DNA of 64,000 nt from Phenylobacterium immobile (ATCC 35973) (GCF_001375595.1 NZ_CVJQ01000001.1:1860001-1924000); one strand, 5' to 3'; shown: positions 23,247-58,943, counted from the stretch's first letter. Translations and numbers: made by a program. Notes: generated from the sequence alone by a model not told the origin.

Positions 23247-23435
23247 TCAGGAACTCCTCAGCCGGGTCGCCGCCTCGTCGAGGGCCGTGCGGTTGTTCCC
23301 GTGTCGCGCGATGAGTTCGCGGGCCTGGTCGGCGCTGATGCCGTGCTTGTTGGCGAAATATTCGACTTCATAGTCTTCGCCGCCTGCCACGCGGCTGCGG
23401 TCGGGCTCGCCGCGATTGTTGGTGCTATCGGCCAC
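23247..23435 (-). CDS. DUF3606-like small protein
   Basis: A 62-residue hydrophilic protein. The C-terminal half (EYFANKHGISADQARELIAR) resembles DUF3606, a short helical family common in alphaproteobacteria. The GTG at 23435 is chosen because GGGAG lies about 8 bases upstream and the N-terminus then reads MADSTNNRGEP. It is followed directly by the 61-residue gene. The role is unknown; family members often sit near stress-response genes, which is family context and not proof here. Confidence 0.65.
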   Translation of the reverse strand: MADSTNNRGEPDRSRVAGGEDYEVEYFANKHGISADQARELIARHGNNRTALDEAATRLRSS

Positions 23436-43372: not shown

Positions 43373-44692
43373 TCACACAATATCGGGTTGGGGGAAAGTC
43401 GCACCAGGCAGATGGCTCTGTTGGGTTATCGCGGTGCGCTCGGCGTCTGACAGGCGATTGAGCACGGCGATATAGCCATCCGCTACGCCGTCGCCGTTCA
43501 GGTCGACCTCAAGCACGGTGAACGGTGTTTCGGGCGCCGGAGGGTGCGGTTCGCCGCCGCCTGGCGTAGGTTTGATCGTCGTTTCGCCGTGGAAGCCAGC
43601 GCCGCGGATCAATCCCTTCAGCGCGCCCTCTGGCGGAGGCCCATCGCCGAAGCGCATCCCTGCAGCGCGGCCATCGGCGGTGACCAGGCGATCGCCTTCG
43701 AGAAAGCGGAAGTCGAGGATTGCGCCCAGTAGTCGATCGGCGCCGCCTGCTTCATTTGGGGCGCGTAGAACGAAGGAGTCGCCGCCAACGCCGCCCGCCG
43801 CGAGCGTGTGAGCGTCGAGATAGAGGTGGTCGTCTCCGGCGCCCCCGATCAATGTGTCCCAAAGGCCTTCTGGGGCGCCGCCACCGGAAAGTGTGTCGGC
43901 GCCATCACCGCCAGAGATGAAATCCGCGCCCTTCGCGCCGATGAGCCGATCATTGCCGTCGGTGCCTGCCACGTGCGTCACCGCATCAAACCGCATGAAC
44001 TCCGGCTCTTCGGAAAGGCGCCACTGCCCACCGCTCCCGCTCGCTTCGGAGCCTGCCAGGGCGATTGTCGGAAGGCTGGTCGCCGCCGCTGCGGACGCCG
44101 CATGCGCGGTCTCGGCGGCCGCGAGGGCGTTGCGCGCCTGACTCGGATCTGACGGCGCTGTCGCATCCTGCCCAGCCGCGCGCGGCGCGTCGGATGGGGG
44201 CGGGGCGTTGGCGCCATTTTCGGTGGCCTCAGCGACCGTGCTCGGGGTCGGGGCGTCAGGCTCGACCCCCGCCAGGGTGGCGGTGAACAACGGCAGGCGC
44301 GATTCGATGGCGAACGCCGCGCCCACGATCAACGCGATCAGCACCTGCGCTTCGCGACCATCATCATTGGCCGCCCGGAAGGCGGACCTGGGCGACGCCG
44401 GCAGGCGGTCCGCCAGGGCGCTGCGCAGGTCGGGCGCCTCGGCCATGACGTCATCGGCCGCGTAGTGGACGACAACGCGGGCGCCGATCCGGGCGACGTG
44501 GATCAGCACCTCAGAATCCTGGTCGGTCACCACGCACCAGGGGTCGCCGGAGTCGGACGCGCCGAACGCCACCTCGACGGGCGTGGCTTCAGCCGTCAAC
44601 TGGTCGACCAGCGCCTGCAGGCTCGCCCGCTCCGGGGCTGTCCAGCCGCCTTCGGCCTGAAGTCTGGCGATAAAGGGGAGAATGTCGCCCAT
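43373..44692 (-). CDS. RTX-repeat protein with N-terminal domain and internal hydrophobic segment
   Basis: A 439-residue protein in four parts. Residues 1-105 look globular (MGDILPFIARLQAEGGW, VLIHVARIGARVVVHYAADD) and have no signal peptide. Residues 116-129 are hydrophobic (VLIALIVGAAFAIE). Residues 140-215 are Ala/Pro/Thr-rich and probably disordered. Residues 240-305 carry RTX-like calcium repeats (GTDGNDRLIGAKGADFISGG, GGAGDDHLYL), and DLNGDGVADGYI (397-408) is an EF-hand-like loop. RTX proteins are normally type I secretion substrates; no transporter is nearby. Function unknown. Confidence 0.75.
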   Translation of the reverse strand: MGDILPFIARLQAEGGWTAPERASLQALVDQLTAEATPVEVAFGASDSGDPWCVVTDQDSEVLIHVARIGARVVVHYAADDVMAEAPDLRSALADRLPASPRSAFRAANDDGREAQVLIALIVGAAFAIESRLPLFTATLAGVEPDAPTPSTVAEATENGANAPPPSDAPRAAGQDATAPSDPSQARNALAAAETAHAASAAAATSLPTIALAGSEASGSGGQWRLSEEPEFMRFDAVTHVAGTDGNDRLIGAKGADFISGGDGADTLSGGGAPEGLWDTLIGGAGDDHLYLDAHTLAAGGVGGDSFVLRAPNEAGGADRLLGAILDFRFLEGDRLVTADGRAAGMRFGDGPPPEGALKGLIRGAGFHGETTIKPTPGGGEPHPPAPETPFTVLEVDLNGDGVADGYIAVLNRLSDAERTAITQQSHLPGATFPQPDIV

Positions 44693-44726: not shown

Positions 44727-45047
44727 TCAGGCGCTCGCTCTCAAGGCGTCGGCCTCGAAGAGCAGGCGGTGAAGTTCGGGTTCATAGAATTCCAGGAGCG
44801 TCCTGGCGAATGAACTCGGATTAAGGTTCAGGGCCAGCGCCCAGGCCGCCTGCATCTCGATAGGCACGCGGCCGACGCCGCTCTCCACCTGGGAGACGAA
44901 CGTGTAGTAGCGCAGGCCGACCCGCTCGGCGAGTTCGGCCTGGGTCAGGCTACGCGCTTCCCGCGCCGCCTTCAGCCAACGACCAGCCTCCTGGCGCAGC
45001 GCCTTGGTCTGGGCGGCCTTGGCGGGATCAGGCGCGGGTCTCGACAT
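44727..45047 (-). CDS. XRE-family helix-turn-helix regulator
   Basis: A 106-residue protein with a Cro/C1-type DNA-binding domain at about 18-75: LKAAREARSLTQAELAERVG is the helix-turn-helix and YYTFVSQVESGVGRVP the following helix. A C-terminal helical part (FARTLLEFYEPELHRLLFE) may dimerise. It is divergent from the large autotransporter gene with a shared 145-base AT-rich spacer containing dyads, so it is a good candidate for controlling both. That link is inference. Confidence 0.85.
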   Translation of the reverse strand: MSRPAPDPAKAAQTKALRQEAGRWLKAAREARSLTQAELAERVGLRYYTFVSQVESGVGRVPIEMQAAWALALNLNPSSFARTLLEFYEPELHRLLFEADALRASA

Positions 45048-45110
45048 GAAGGCCTTGCATCCGGTTTGAAGGGGCAGGCTTCCAGGCCTTGCCGCCCGGC
45101 GATTCCGCCG

Positions 45111-45144
45111 CTAGTTTAGTTTTAACGCAACTAGTAAACGATAG
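45111..45144. promoter_or_regulatory. AT-rich dyads between XRE gene and autotransporter
   Basis: Within an unusually AT-rich patch, CTAGTT (45111-45116) is mirrored by AACTAG (45129-45134), and GTTTA (45114-45118) by TAAAC (45135-45139). The octamer AACGATAG follows at 45137-45144 and recurs at 48211-48218. This placement, 50-80 bases before the autotransporter start and 65-95 before the XRE start, is what an operator for both genes would show. The sequences are seen; binding is inferred. Confidence 0.5.
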
Positions 45145-45192
45145 ATGCATCTTCGCACGTCGAACGTATCACGTCGTCAAGGAATGAGAAGC

Positions 45193-48100
45193 ATGAAGCG
45201 CAGGCTGCTGAACTCGGCCGTCTTCCCGTGGATGGTCCTTCCCCTTGTGATGGCCGGGCACGCTTGCGCCGAGACCAGCATCTCCACCGCCACGACGGCC
45301 CCGGTGGCGACAGCCACGGCGGCTAACGGCCAGCCCGACAGCCTGCTGATCACCACCGCAGGGTCTGTCGTCCCGACAGTTTCGGGTGCGGCGGTGACGG
45401 TGAATTCGAACCATGCCGTCACCAACAACGGTTCGATCAGCTTCAACGACGTGAACGACGCGACGGGCGTCCTGCTCGCGGGCGGCGCCGGGGGCGGCCT
45501 GACCAACACCGGCTCGATCAGTCTCGGCGAGACCTATGTGGCCGCCGACGGCGACAATGATGGCGATGTCGATGGCGTCTTCGCCCAAGGCGCGCGGCGT
45601 TACGGCGTGCGGCTGGGCGCCGGGACTTACACAGGGAACCTCAACAACGCGGGCTCCATCACCGTGAAGGGCGTTGATTCCGCGGCTGTCCTGCTCGAAG
45701 GCCGGCTGGTGGGATCGCTTTTGAGTTCAGGCTCGATCTCGGTGATTGGCGAACGCACCGTCGGCTTGTCGGCCGCCTCCGTCGCCGGCGATGTGCGGGT
45801 CACGGGCGCCGTCTCCGCGGCGGGCGAAGCCGCCACCGCGATCCGGCTGGGCCAGATCGACGGATTAGTCGCCCTTCAAGGCGCCATCACGGCGACGGGC
45901 TATCGCTACACCAGCCGGCTGACCGATGCGGAGCGGGCCAAGCTGGACGCCGACGACCTGAAGCAGGGCGGTGCGGCCGTGGCGATCACGGGCTCGGTCG
46001 GCCGCGGGTTGTTGCTTGATGCGCCCCCTAGCAATGTCGACGCCAATGACGCCGACGAGGACGATGACGGCGTCGACGATTCCGCGGAGCTGACGGCGGC
46101 GGTGACGTCCTATGGCGGCGCGCCAGCCATCCTGATCTCTGGCGACCAGGCCCTGAGCCTGGGCGCAGTCGGACCGGGCGCTCTGGCCTACGGCGTCGTC
46201 AACAAGGGTCAGGTCAATGCCTATGGCGTGTTCGACGGAATCGACGCCACGGCGCTGAAGATCGGCCGATCTGGCGGGCAGGGCGTAATTGTGACCGGCG
46301 GCATCAACAACCTGGGCGGCGCCGTTGTGGCTTCAGCGTACAACGCCTCGGCGACGGCGGTGCTCCTTGAGGGTGACGCGAGTGTTCCGGCCCTGTTGAA
46401 TTCCGGCGCAATCACGGCGACGCAGACGGGCGGAGCGCACAACGCCAGCGCCATCGTCGATCTGTCCGGAAGCCTGGGCTGGATCGAGAGCTCCGGGACG
46501 ATCACGGCGGGAGTCACGGCGACCACGGGGGTCAAGCCGACAGGCGAGGCGATCGCCATCGACCTGACGCGCAACGGCGCGGGTGCGACGGTCCGGCAAA
46601 CCGCCGGTAGCGAAGCCGCGCCTTCGGCCATCACCGGCGCCGTGCGGTTTGGCGCGGGCGACGACAGGCTGGAGATCCTGTCCGGCTCTTTGACGGGCGA
46701 CATGCGCTTCGGCGCTGGTGCGGACACGCTGGTGGTGGATGGGTTGGCCAAGGTGCAGGGCGCGCTGAGCGACGGCGACGGTCGGCTGACGATCGACCTC
46801 AGGTCAGGCCGGCTGGGCCTGACCAACGCCGGCGCGGTGGCGGTCAGCGCCCTGAACGTCGGCGCGACGGGCGTGTTCGCTGTCACCATTGATCCCACGG
46901 CCGGCGCGACCGGCGGGCTGAATGTGGCGGGCGAAGCCGCATTCGCGGATGGCGCGAAGGTGGAGGTCGCCCTGACCTCGCTTTTGAAGGATCCCGCCAG
47001 TTTCGAAGTGGTGCGGGCCGGTTCGCTGAAGGTCGGCGCCGTGGGCGCCACCCTGGGCGGCGCACCCTACCTCTATGCTGCGTCGCTGAAGGCCAATGCG
47101 ACCACGGGCGTGCTGTCGGTGGATCTAAGACGCAAGACGGTCGAAGAGATTGGCCTGACGGGTTCTGGAGCGCAGGCCTATGACGCGGTGTTTGGCGCGC
47201 TGGGACAGTCGAGCGCCCTGCAAGGCGCCTTCCTGGCGCAAACGACCCAGGCGGGCTTTGAAGGTCTCTATGATCAGATGCTGCCGGACCATGCCGGGGC
47301 GTCGCTGATGTCGGCCGCGGCGATCTCCGGGGCCATCGCCTCGGCGACGGCGGCGCCGAGGCGCGCCTCGACCAATGTCGATTCGGCCGTCTGGGCGCAG
47401 GAGATCGCCTTCAACATCCGCCGCGCCCGTGAAAGCGCCGCCGGTTACGCTTCCAGCGGCTTTGGCTTGGCGGCGGGGGCGGAAGCGATCTCAGGACCTC
47501 AGGCGCTGGGGCTCAGCATGAGCTTCGTCAGCACAGACTACCGTGACCGTGGGGCCGACGATCGCGAGCAGGTCTCGATGTCGCTGATCTCCGGCGGCGC
47601 CTATTGGCGTGTGCGACAGGGTGCGTTCCAGGCCCATGTCGGCGCGGGCCTTGGCTATGGCGTGTTCGACGGCAAGCGGCGCCTGAGCGGCGCGGGTCTC
47701 GACCTTGTGGCGGACGGCAAATGGCGCGGTTGGCTGGCGAAGGCCGACGCCAGCGCGGCCTACACACTGGAGGCTGGCCCCTTCTATGCGCGGCCTCAAC
47801 TGTCTGTGAATTATGTGCGGCTCGCGGAGAGCGGCTACCAGGAACGTGGCGGCGGCGACGGGTTCGATCTCAAGGTCTCCAGCCGCACAGGCGACTTCCT
47901 AACCGGCGAAGGCCTGATGGCGATTGGCGCGCGGTTTGGCGGCGACGACTACTGGGCGCCCGAGGTCAGCGTCGGTTATCGCCAGCGCCTTGCTGGATCG
48001 CCCGGCCGGACAACCGCCAGCTTTTCCGGCGGCGATTCCTTCACCGTCGACCCCGAACGACCCTTCAAGAGCGCCGTCCTTGCGCGCGGCGGGGTGAAGA

Positions 48101-48201
48101 TCGGCTTTAGCGACGTCTTAATTGCAGTCGATGGCGGCGGCGCCTTTGAGGCGAACTACCGCGAGTACGATGTGCGGGCGGTGATCCGATACCAATTCTG
48201 A
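45193..48201 (+). CDS. Autotransporter (type V secretion) with Ca-binding-like loops
   Basis: A 1002-residue surface protein. Signal peptide about 1-26 (MKRRLLNSAVFPWMVLPLVM, then AGHACAET). The passenger (about 30-640) is made of repeated short beta-strand units with Asn/Gly turns, such as NNGSISF, NTGSISLGET and NNAGSITVKG, as in beta-helix passengers. Two acidic loops, DGDNDGDVDG (119-128) and DADEDDDGVDD (about 286-296), look like calcium sites. The last 270 residues form the outer-membrane barrel, ending in VIRYQF with a terminal Phe. Start 45193 follows AAGGA at a good distance. Adhesion or surface function is likely but unproven. Confidence 0.88.
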   Translation: MKRRLLNSAVFPWMVLPLVMAGHACAETSISTATTAPVATATAANGQPDSLLITTAGSVVPTVSGAAVTVNSNHAVTNNGSISFNDVNDATGVLLAGGAGGGLTNTGSISLGETYVAADGDNDGDVDGVFAQGARRYGVRLGAGTYTGNLNNAGSITVKGVDSAAVLLEGRLVGSLLSSGSISVIGERTVGLSAASVAGDVRVTGAVSAAGEAATAIRLGQIDGLVALQGAITATGYRYTSRLTDAERAKLDADDLKQGGAAVAITGSVGRGLLLDAPPSNVDANDADEDDDGVDDSAELTAAVTSYGGAPAILISGDQALSLGAVGPGALAYGVVNKGQVNAYGVFDGIDATALKIGRSGGQGVIVTGGINNLGGAVVASAYNASATAVLLEGDASVPALLNSGAITATQTGGAHNASAIVDLSGSLGWIESSGTITAGVTATTGVKPTGEAIAIDLTRNGAGATVRQTAGSEAAPSAITGAVRFGAGDDRLEILSGSLTGDMRFGAGADTLVVDGLAKVQGALSDGDGRLTIDLRSGRLGLTNAGAVAVSALNVGATGVFAVTIDPTAGATGGLNVAGEAAFADGAKVEVALTSLLKDPASFEVVRAGSLKVGAVGATLGGAPYLYAASLKANATTGVLSVDLRRKTVEEIGLTGSGAQAYDAVFGALGQSSALQGAFLAQTTQAGFEGLYDQMLPDHAGASLMSAAAISGAIASATAAPRRASTNVDSAVWAQEIAFNIRRARESAAGYASSGFGLAAGAEAISGPQALGLSMSFVSTDYRDRGADDREQVSMSLISGGAYWRVRQGAFQAHVGAGLGYGVFDGKRRLSGAGLDLVADGKWRGWLAKADASAAYTLEAGPFYARPQLSVNYVRLAESGYQERGGGDGFDLKVSSRTGDFLTGEGLMAIGARFGGDDYWAPEVSVGYRQRLAGSPGRTTASFSGGDSFTVDPERPFKSAVLARGGVKIGFSDVLIAVDGGGAFEANYREYDVRAVIRYQF

Positions 48202-48210
48202 TGTTGCTAT

Positions 48211-48233
48211 AACGATAGTTGTATTATAACTAT
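48211..48233. promoter_or_regulatory. AT-rich dyad and shared octamer after the autotransporter
   Basis: Just past the autotransporter stop, AACGATAG (48211-48218) repeats the octamer at 45137-45144, and ATAGTT (48215-48220) is mirrored by AACTAT (48228-48233) across 7 bases. The half-site TAGTT also occurs in the upstream dyad. It lies about 105-125 bases before a 37-residue membrane peptide gene, so it may control that gene by the same regulator. Confidence 0.4.
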
Positions 48234-48336
48234 ATATGGGTTCCTCCCCTTCCGCCGTCTGGCCGGAGCGCGCGCGACACTTCCCCCCGTCGCCGTGTTC
48301 CGATCAGGCGGCGGACGCTGAGAAGGTCTTGGAAAG

Positions 48337-48450
48337 ATGCGTAAACGTTACGAAATCCGCTGGGCTCGCGTTCCTGAGACGCTCGGCATGGCGGTGACCC
48401 TGATCGCCTTGGGCGTGGTCTTGGCTGGCGGCCTGACCGGTCCTTTCTAG
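48337..48450 (+). CDS. 37-residue single-pass membrane peptide
   Basis: A short gene from ATG 48337 to TAG 48450, preceded by GGAAAG. The peptide has a basic start (MRKRYEIRWARVPET) and one hydrophobic segment (LGMAVTLIALGVVLAGGL), a positive-inside arrangement typical of small inner-membrane proteins. Its codons are G/C-rich at third positions. The stop shares a CTAG with the convergent histidine kinase stop. No family recognised. It could be a regulator of a membrane partner, but nothing in the sequence says which. Confidence 0.6.
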   Translation: MRKRYEIRWARVPETLGMAVTLIALGVVLAGGLTGPF

Positions 48451-58451: not shown

Positions 58452-58943
58452 ATGCGGACTGCAATCTTGGCTGGAGCCGCCGTGGCGGCGCTCAGCTTCT
58501 CAGGCGTCGCGCTGGCCGCGCCCGCGTCGGTCACCGTGAATGTCGGCCCGGAACTTCAGGAAAAGGCCGACAAATATGGCCAACGTGATCTGGATCTCCT
58601 GACGCGCGACCTGCAACGCACGGTGAGCCATCGCCTCGCACGATCGGGCGCCTATGACGATGCTCGGATCGAGCTGACGCTGGTCGACGCCAAGCCAAAC
58701 CGCCCGACCTTCGAAGAGATGGGCGCCAGCCTTGGCCTTTCGCCGCTCAGCTTCGGGATTGGTGGCGCGGAGATCGTCGGTCGCGCCATCCGCCCTGATG
58801 GTGTGGAAACGCCGATTGGCTACAAGTGGTATGAGACGGATATACGCCAGGCGCCCTATAGATCGACCTGGGGCGACGCGCAGATCGTCTTTGAACGCTT
58901 CGCCTACCGCCTCGCCAAGGGCGACCAGGTGGCGATGCGCTGA
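58452..58943 (+). CDS. Exported hypothetical protein (163 aa)
   Basis: A 163-residue secreted protein with signal peptide about 1-22 (MRTAILAGAAVAALSFSGVA, then LAAPAS). The mature domain is mixed alpha/beta: QRDLDLLTRDLQRTVSHRLA, RIELTLVDAKPNRPTF and GGAEIVGRAIRPDGVETP, then WGDAQIVFERFAYRLAKGD. No cysteines. I do not recognise a named family. It has CGGAGAG before the ATG and ends at a strong terminator, so it appears to be a single-gene unit. Confidence 0.72.
   Translation: MRTAILAGAAVAALSFSGVALAAPASVTVNVGPELQEKADKYGQRDLDLLTRDLQRTVSHRLARSGAYDDARIELTLVDAKPNRPTFEEMGASLGLSPLSFGIGGAEIVGRAIRPDGVETPIGYKWYETDIRQAPYRSTWGDAQIVFERFAYRLAKGDQVAMR

What the first reader, a model, noticed from the sequence alone, without database searches (positions are those of the whole stretch)
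44727..48450. XRE regulator, autotransporter and 37-residue peptide framed by repeated operator-like DNA
A divergent XRE gene and a 1002-residue autotransporter share an AT-rich spacer with dyads CTAGTT/AACTAG and GTTTA/TAAAC and the octamer AACGATAG (45137). The same octamer (48211), followed by ATAGTT/AACTAT, lies after the autotransporter and before a 37-residue membrane peptide. This suggests one regulator controlling a surface protein and a small membrane partner as a unit, with no described system of that form known to me. It is the best candidate in the window for an undescribed system.
Basis: partly seen in the sequence, partly recalled or inferred. Interest (0 to 1): 0.6.

Follow-up and report, generated by a model that had tools for sequence, protein, structure and literature searches.

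The report
XRE surface regulon with leader peptide
A small DNA-binding repressor in the soil and water bacterium Phenylobacterium appears to switch, through one shared DNA site, a large surface protein, its own calcium-binding partner and a tiny membrane peptide whose messenger RNA begins with a conserved folded structure; the grouping looks real and has not, as far as I found, been described.

Summary
The core observation holds, with corrections. A weight matrix built only from 43 relatives' XRE spacers ranks two sites first among about 128,000 window positions: 48218-48234 (-) at 19.8 bits and 45115-45131 (+) at 19.5; the third scores 7.6. The shared element is this 17-mer (consensus TACAGTnnTTACGnAAC), not the octamer AACGATAG. 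The genome is a Phenylobacterium.

In relatives the 37-residue peptide family sits at other loci. Yet 20 of 21 peptide genes carry the operator within 200 nt upstream, and all 19 peptide-bearing genomes sampled have XRE. Between operator and peptide lies a roughly 95-nt structured leader with C-rich loops, absent from Rfam; the window keeps a simpler hairpin (z = -4.4).

Best reading: a local XRE repressor, autoregulated with RTX, controls an autotransporter and a leader-controlled one-helix membrane peptide. Binding, repression, translation and leader function are inferred. New variant of a known kind (XRE control of surface adhesins).

The parts
44727..45047 (-). XRE-family (HTH_3) DNA-binding protein, 106 aa, proposed autoregulated repressor
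   Evidence: HTH_3 27.5 bits vs cut-off 23; orthologues at 70-79% identity in 47 of 101 Phenylobacterium genomes, the window's own included
43373..44692 (-). RTX calcium-binding protein, 439 aa, next gene behind XRE and probably its operon partner
   Evidence: HemolysinCabind E 1e-8; behind XRE in almost all relatives, also in Caulobacter, Niveispirillum and Azospirillum; model: N-terminal alpha/beta domain, long hydrophobic helix 113-142, RTX beta-roll 240-350
45089..45117 (+). Probable autotransporter promoter TTGCCG-N17-TAGTTT, overlapping the operator
   Evidence: Read from sequence; several relatives show TTGCnn-N17-TAnTAC or TACAGT; inference
45114..45131 (+). Operator 1, GTTTAGTTTTAACGCAAC (matrix core 45115-45131), quasi-palindrome GTTnnGTTnnAACnnAAC
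   Evidence: 19.5 bits, rank 2 in the window; only exact match to AGTWWWWACKHAAC in the whole genome
45193..48201 (+). Autotransporter, 1002 aa: signal-peptide-like N-terminus, repetitive passenger, C-terminal beta-domain
   Evidence: PF03797 E 2.5e-24; full-length relatives divergent from XRE
48204..48209 (+). Possible -35 (TTGCTA) of the peptide gene
   Evidence: Read from sequence; inference
48218..48234 (-). Operator 2, TATAGTTATAATACAAC on the minus strand, upstream of the peptide gene
   Evidence: 19.8 bits, rank 1 in the window by a matrix built from relatives only
48251..48315 (+). Leader hairpin with C-rich loop (ACUUCCCCCCG), proposed reduced form of the three-way-junction leader of relatives
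   Evidence: z -4.4 for 48236-48336; covariance model R1 hit only E 1.2
48337..48450 (+). 37-residue peptide MRKRYEIRWARVPETLGMAVTLIALGVVLAGGLTGPF, basic N-terminus plus one hydrophobic helix
   Evidence: Best homologue 64% identical, E 1.6e-8; family invariant R-Y....W; codon positions 1/2/3 diverge 0.32/0.18/0.53 across 17 members

Best explanation
The XRE protein is a local repressor of a small envelope regulon. It binds the operator TACAGTnnTTACGnAAC (in this genome GTTTAGTTTTAACGCAAC), which overlaps the divergent promoters of the autotransporter gene and of its own XRE-RTX operon, so it represses both. The same operator overlaps the promoter of a gene for a one-helix membrane peptide (RYxIRWxRxxE family). 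That transcript begins with a structured leader whose C-rich loop probably adds a second, translational level of control. When repression is lifted the cell makes the autotransporter, the RTX protein and the peptide together and so changes its surface. Shown here: gene content, conservation, operator conservation, co-occurrence, leader folding. Inferred: binding by this XRE, repression rather than activation, translation of the peptide, the leader's function, and the surface or adhesion role.
For: The 16-bp pattern ACAGTNNTTACGNAAC has 34 matches in 31 of 101 genomes, 29 of them at the XRE spacer; comparing lists, all 31 genomes are among the 47 that carry XRE. Peptide genes found by homology: 20 of 21 have the operator within 200 nt upstream at 14-32 bits, against at most 3.7 elsewhere in about 3 kb. 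All 19 peptide-bearing genomes in a sample of 299 family genomes carry XRE; leader versus XRE co-occurrence 17/47 against 1/54, Fisher 7e-6. The operator also precedes XRE in Caulobacter, which has no such autotransporter there, and related sites precede XRE homologues in Bradyrhizobium, pointing to the linked XRE as the binder. XRE-RTX adjacency across genera. Leader stem with compensatory changes at 3 of 13 pairs and in operator-selected class B leaders, one of which matches the model at 8e-6. Relatives' peptide promoters are TTGAC-N17-TCCAGT with the operator starting at the -10, which suits repression by occlusion.
Against: No binding or expression data. Operator 2 is degenerate and on the minus strand, whereas relatives' peptide operators mostly face the gene. 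The window leader is a poor match to the covariance model (E 1.2). The peptide's proximity to the autotransporter is not conserved. Co-occurrence statistics ignore phylogeny. Another XRE paralogue could bind the same site. The secreted protein at 58452-58940 carries the operator in seven relatives but not here.
Confidence: 0.7

Rival explanations
1. XRE regulates only itself, RTX and the divergent autotransporter; the site before the peptide in this genome is a decayed or chance A+T-rich match, and the peptide is a neighbour without a shared role.
For: Operator 2 is degenerate, reversed and in an A+T-rich stretch (P 0.002-0.015 by local Markov shuffles); the leader model match is weak; adjacency is not conserved.
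Against: Peptide homologues elsewhere carry strong operators in nearly all cases (20 of 21 counting the window's own); the window site is the best in the window by an independent matrix.
Confidence: 0.15
2. The sites belong to a different regulator, for example a CdxA/RtrA-like XRE paralogue acting on many surface genes, and the linked XRE is one target among several.
For: Caulobacter XRE paralogues bind overlapping sites and act mainly as repressors (PMC10688885); other XRE-like proteins are encoded in these genomes (weak hits).
Against: The motif stays with this XRE gene across genera, including where the neighbours change, and its strict form is limited to XRE-bearing genomes; the consensus of PraR, the CdxA homologue of other genera, is CAAC-N5-GTTG (PMC5527310).
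Confidence: 0.15
3. The leader upstream of the peptide is the functional product, a small RNA with C-rich loops that targets ribosome-binding sites, and the peptide is secondary or absent.
For: Leader structure is conserved with compensatory changes; the loop CCUCCCCCC is complementary to a ribosome-binding site (sequence).
Against: The peptide is conserved as protein: third codon positions diverge most (0.53 against 0.18 at the second), and R, Y and W are invariant.
Confidence: 0.2

Closest known systems
PraR (Rhizobium, Azorhizobium) and CdxA/CdxB/RtrA/RtrB (Caulobacter) XRE repressors of adhesion genes
   Same: XRE-type regulators in Alphaproteobacteria; PraR represses genes of secreted attachment proteins (rapA2, rapB, rapC; PMC4149787) and the Caulobacter set is mainly repressive (PMC10688885)
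   Different: PraR consensus CAAC-N5-GTTG (PMC5527310) differs from the operator here; no RTX partner gene, autotransporter or leader-peptide gene is part of those descriptions in the passages I read; protein orthology was not tested
Bartonella Brt RNA / Trp XRE system controlling the autotransporter adhesin badA
   Same: XRE-type regulator plus structured RNA controlling an autotransporter (PMC5387305)
   Different: Brt RNA lies directly upstream of the XRE (Trp) gene; here the RNA is the leader of a separate membrane-peptide gene; BadA is a trimeric autotransporter, a different class
Alphaproteobacterial small RNAs with C-rich (CCUCCUCCC-type) loops
   Same: C-rich hairpin loops complementary to ribosome-binding sites (from my own knowledge)
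   Different: No Rfam family matched up to E 1 except two chance-level hits away from the leader; here the structure is joined to a conserved ORF
Classical (type Va) autotransporters
   Same: Signal-peptide-like N-terminus, passenger, C-terminal beta-domain
   Different: Passenger function unknown; tied to an XRE/RTX pair

Membership tests
XRE / HTH_3 transcription factors | HTH_3 domain above curated cut-off | tested here: met
   27.5 bits against 23
XRE / HTH_3 transcription factors | Binds specific DNA near its own gene | not testable with these tools
   Only indirect: conserved operator upstream of orthologues in several genera
PraR/CdxA adhesion repressors | PraR consensus operator CAAC-N5-GTTG | tested here: not met
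   Conserved operator is TACAGTnnTTACGnAAC; compared by eye
PraR/CdxA adhesion repressors | Orthologous protein and gene neighbourhood | not tested
   No PraR or CdxA sequence was fetched for comparison
Type II toxin-antitoxin (HipB/Y4mF-like) | NCBIfam antitoxin model above cut-off | tested here: not met
   couple_hipB 29.1 bits against 71.65
Type II toxin-antitoxin (HipB/Y4mF-like) | Adjacent toxin gene | tested here: not met
   Neighbours are RTX and autotransporter genes
Type Va autotransporter | C-terminal beta-domain PF03797 | tested here: met
   86.8 bits against cut-off 26
Type Va autotransporter | Passenger exported to the surface | not testable with these tools
   Needs an experiment
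Bartonella Brt-Trp circuit | Structured RNA immediately upstream of the XRE gene | tested here: inconclusive
   The structured leader found here precedes the peptide gene, not XRE; the XRE spacer was not itself folded
Known RNA families (Rfam 15) | Match at gathering threshold or credible E-value | tested here: not met
   Two chance-level hits only, neither at the leader
RTX proteins | Gly/Asp-rich calcium-binding nonapeptides | tested here: met
   PF00353 E 1e-8, RTX-containing proteins best in PDB by fold
RTX proteins | Type I secretion of the protein | not tested
   No secretion genes were looked for

The most novel reading that the evidence does not exclude
A previously undescribed two-layer circuit: one XRE repressor co-regulates an autotransporter, an RTX protein and a genus-restricted membrane peptide, and the peptide's mRNA carries a new three-way-junction RNA element that tunes its translation or acts in trans on ribosome-binding sites of the regulon; the peptide then modulates assembly or export of the surface proteins.
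Probability: 0.3. Interest if true: 0.68.

Novelty: new variant of a known kind. Interest (0 to 1): 0.55.

Why it matters
It gives a testable regulon, with exact binding sites, for surface proteins of unknown purpose in a widespread environmental genus. It adds a conserved small membrane protein family and a structured RNA leader that the public libraries searched did not recognise, and shows that a gene pair adjacent in one genome can be a scattered regulon in its relatives.

Tried and rejected
The octamer AACGATAG as the shared element: three copies in the window, not in the conserved motif. The 48211-48234 stem as an intrinsic terminator: no terminator-like site found and no T-run. XRE as a toxin-antitoxin component: model far below cut-off. 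Leader as a known RNA: no Rfam hit at it. The peptide as part of a conserved XRE/autotransporter locus: homologues are elsewhere. A first script for codon divergence failed and was repeated. Covariance model R1 holds only the closing stem because the alignment of the inner hairpins was poor.

Full report
What was checked. XRE is a 106-residue HTH_3 protein, the large ORF has an autotransporter beta-domain, and the 37-residue ORF has no Pfam match. The octamer AACGATAG is at both places but also at 23435 on the other strand, and 3 of 100 shuffles reach three copies, so it carries little weight by itself.

Relatives. The window lies in a 3.33-Mb genome of six contigs; named relatives of the same locus are mostly Phenylobacterium, with further ones in Caulobacter. 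XRE is present at 70-79% identity in 47 of 101 species of the genus, the window's own included. In the fetched loci the gene behind it is almost always an RTX calcium-binding protein and, in Phenylobacterium, the divergent gene is usually the autotransporter. In Caulobacter, Niveispirillum and Azospirillum the XRE-RTX pair is found without this autotransporter. Its model has a confident N-terminal alpha/beta domain, a long hydrophobic helix and an RTX roll; overall confidence is moderate (mean pLDDT 70.6).

The operator. XRE/autotransporter spacers of relatives share TACAGTnnTTACGnAAC with a second conserved block TAYrCGACG downstream at fixed spacing in most. A matrix built from 43 of these, without the window, puts 48218-48234 (-) and 45115-45131 (+) first and second in the window, 19.8 and 19.5 bits, the next at 7.6. 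Against Markov shuffles of the A+T-rich peptide spacer alone, the probability of that score is 0.002 with this matrix and 0.0065 and 0.0145 with two matrices that also include the peptide and third-class sites. In the whole genome the only exact match to AGTWWWWACKHAAC is the XRE spacer. In this genome the site reads GTTTAGTTTTAACGCAAC, a quasi-palindrome GTTnnGTTnnAACnnAAC.

The regulon. The pattern ACAGTNNTTACGNAAC has 34 matches in 31 of 101 genomes; 29 are the XRE spacer, and all 31 genomes carry XRE when the lists are compared. Three of the five others (L132, L133, L135) lie in front of small membrane peptides of the same family as the window peptide: RYAVRW..., RYAIRW..., RYEIRW.... Independently, peptide homologues found by protein similarity proved to have the operator in front of them. 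With the autotransporter-only matrix, 20 of 21 genuine peptide loci (the window's included) score 14-32 bits within 200 nt upstream, and nothing above 3.7 is found elsewhere in about 3 kb; the exception is a second copy in one genome (L281). In a sample of 299 family genomes, 19 carry the peptide, all of one genus and all with XRE; a twentieth hit lies inside a 447-residue frame of another genus and looks like chance. A third class of sites sits just upstream of a secreted protein of about 160 residues, weakly DUF3313-like, in seven genomes. Its window orthologue at 58452-58940 lacks the site.

The leader. Between operator and peptide lies a 95-nt segment that folds into a three-way junction: closing stem CUCGCCACCCGG/CCGGGUGGCGAG and two inner hairpins with C-rich loops. 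Three of 13 closing pairs show changes on both sides. The model finds 18 of 101 genomes and, at 8e-6, one operator-selected class B leader. Rfam has no match at it. The window leader is shorter; it folds well (z -4.4) with the loop ACUUCCCCCCG, but matches the model only at E 1.2. That the window leader is homologous is therefore likely from position, loop and the similar peptide, not proven by the model.

The peptide. 33-42 residues, a basic N-terminus with invariant R, Y and W, then one hydrophobic helix. Codon positions 1, 2 and 3 diverge by 0.32, 0.18 and 0.53, as expected for a translated protein.

How it most likely works. The operator starts at the -10 in relatives' peptide promoters (TTGAC-N17-TCCAGT) and overlaps the probable promoter in front of the autotransporter, so occlusion by XRE is the simplest mechanism. 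Persistence of the motif at XRE itself across genera argues for this XRE as the binder and for autoregulation. What relieves repression is unknown. The C-rich loop could pair with the peptide's own ribosome-binding site or with others; this is speculation.

Compared with what is known. PraR and the Caulobacter XRE set are the nearest functional parallels (PMC4149787, PMC10688885), but the PraR consensus CAAC-N5-GTTG (PMC5527310) differs. Bartonella Brt/Trp (PMC5387305) also joins a structured RNA, an XRE protein and an autotransporter, but in another arrangement. Two literature searches for the XRE/autotransporter combination in these genera showed no description of this system; the library lacks most subscription journals.

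Limits. No binding, expression or translation data. Co-occurrence counts were not corrected for phylogeny. The alignment used for the RNA model resolves only the closing stem. Operator 2 is reversed and degenerate relative to relatives.

Noticed in passing
window 58452-58940 (+): Secreted protein of about 160 residues (weakly DUF3313-like); orthologues in seven other genomes have the XRE operator just upstream, this one does not.
   Followed up: partly
L217, L231, L232 (near the centre of each): Palindrome TTTTAACTTAACAAGTTAAAA between two divergent genes, one of them a probable polysaccharide ABC-transporter ATPase (my reading of the sequence); possibly a different operator.
   Followed up: no
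L191: Contig labelled Sphingomonadaceae MAG carries XRE, RTX and autotransporter all on one strand; transferred or misbinned.
   Followed up: no
L281 (second locus in genome G099): Second copy of the peptide gene about 10 kb from the first, without an operator.
   Followed up: no
L136 3317-3332 (-): Operator directly upstream of another RTX-like gene in genome G096, a possible further regulon member.
   Followed up: no
spacer after operator 1 in relatives, e.g. L098, L100: Second conserved block TAYrCGACGyrTA, often palindromic, at fixed distance from the operator; could be a second binding site. It is degenerate in the window.
   Followed up: partly
L118, L120, L121: More distant XRE paralogue (44-46% identity) followed by a gene with an RTX-like N-terminal domain, without the autotransporter.
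   Followed up: no
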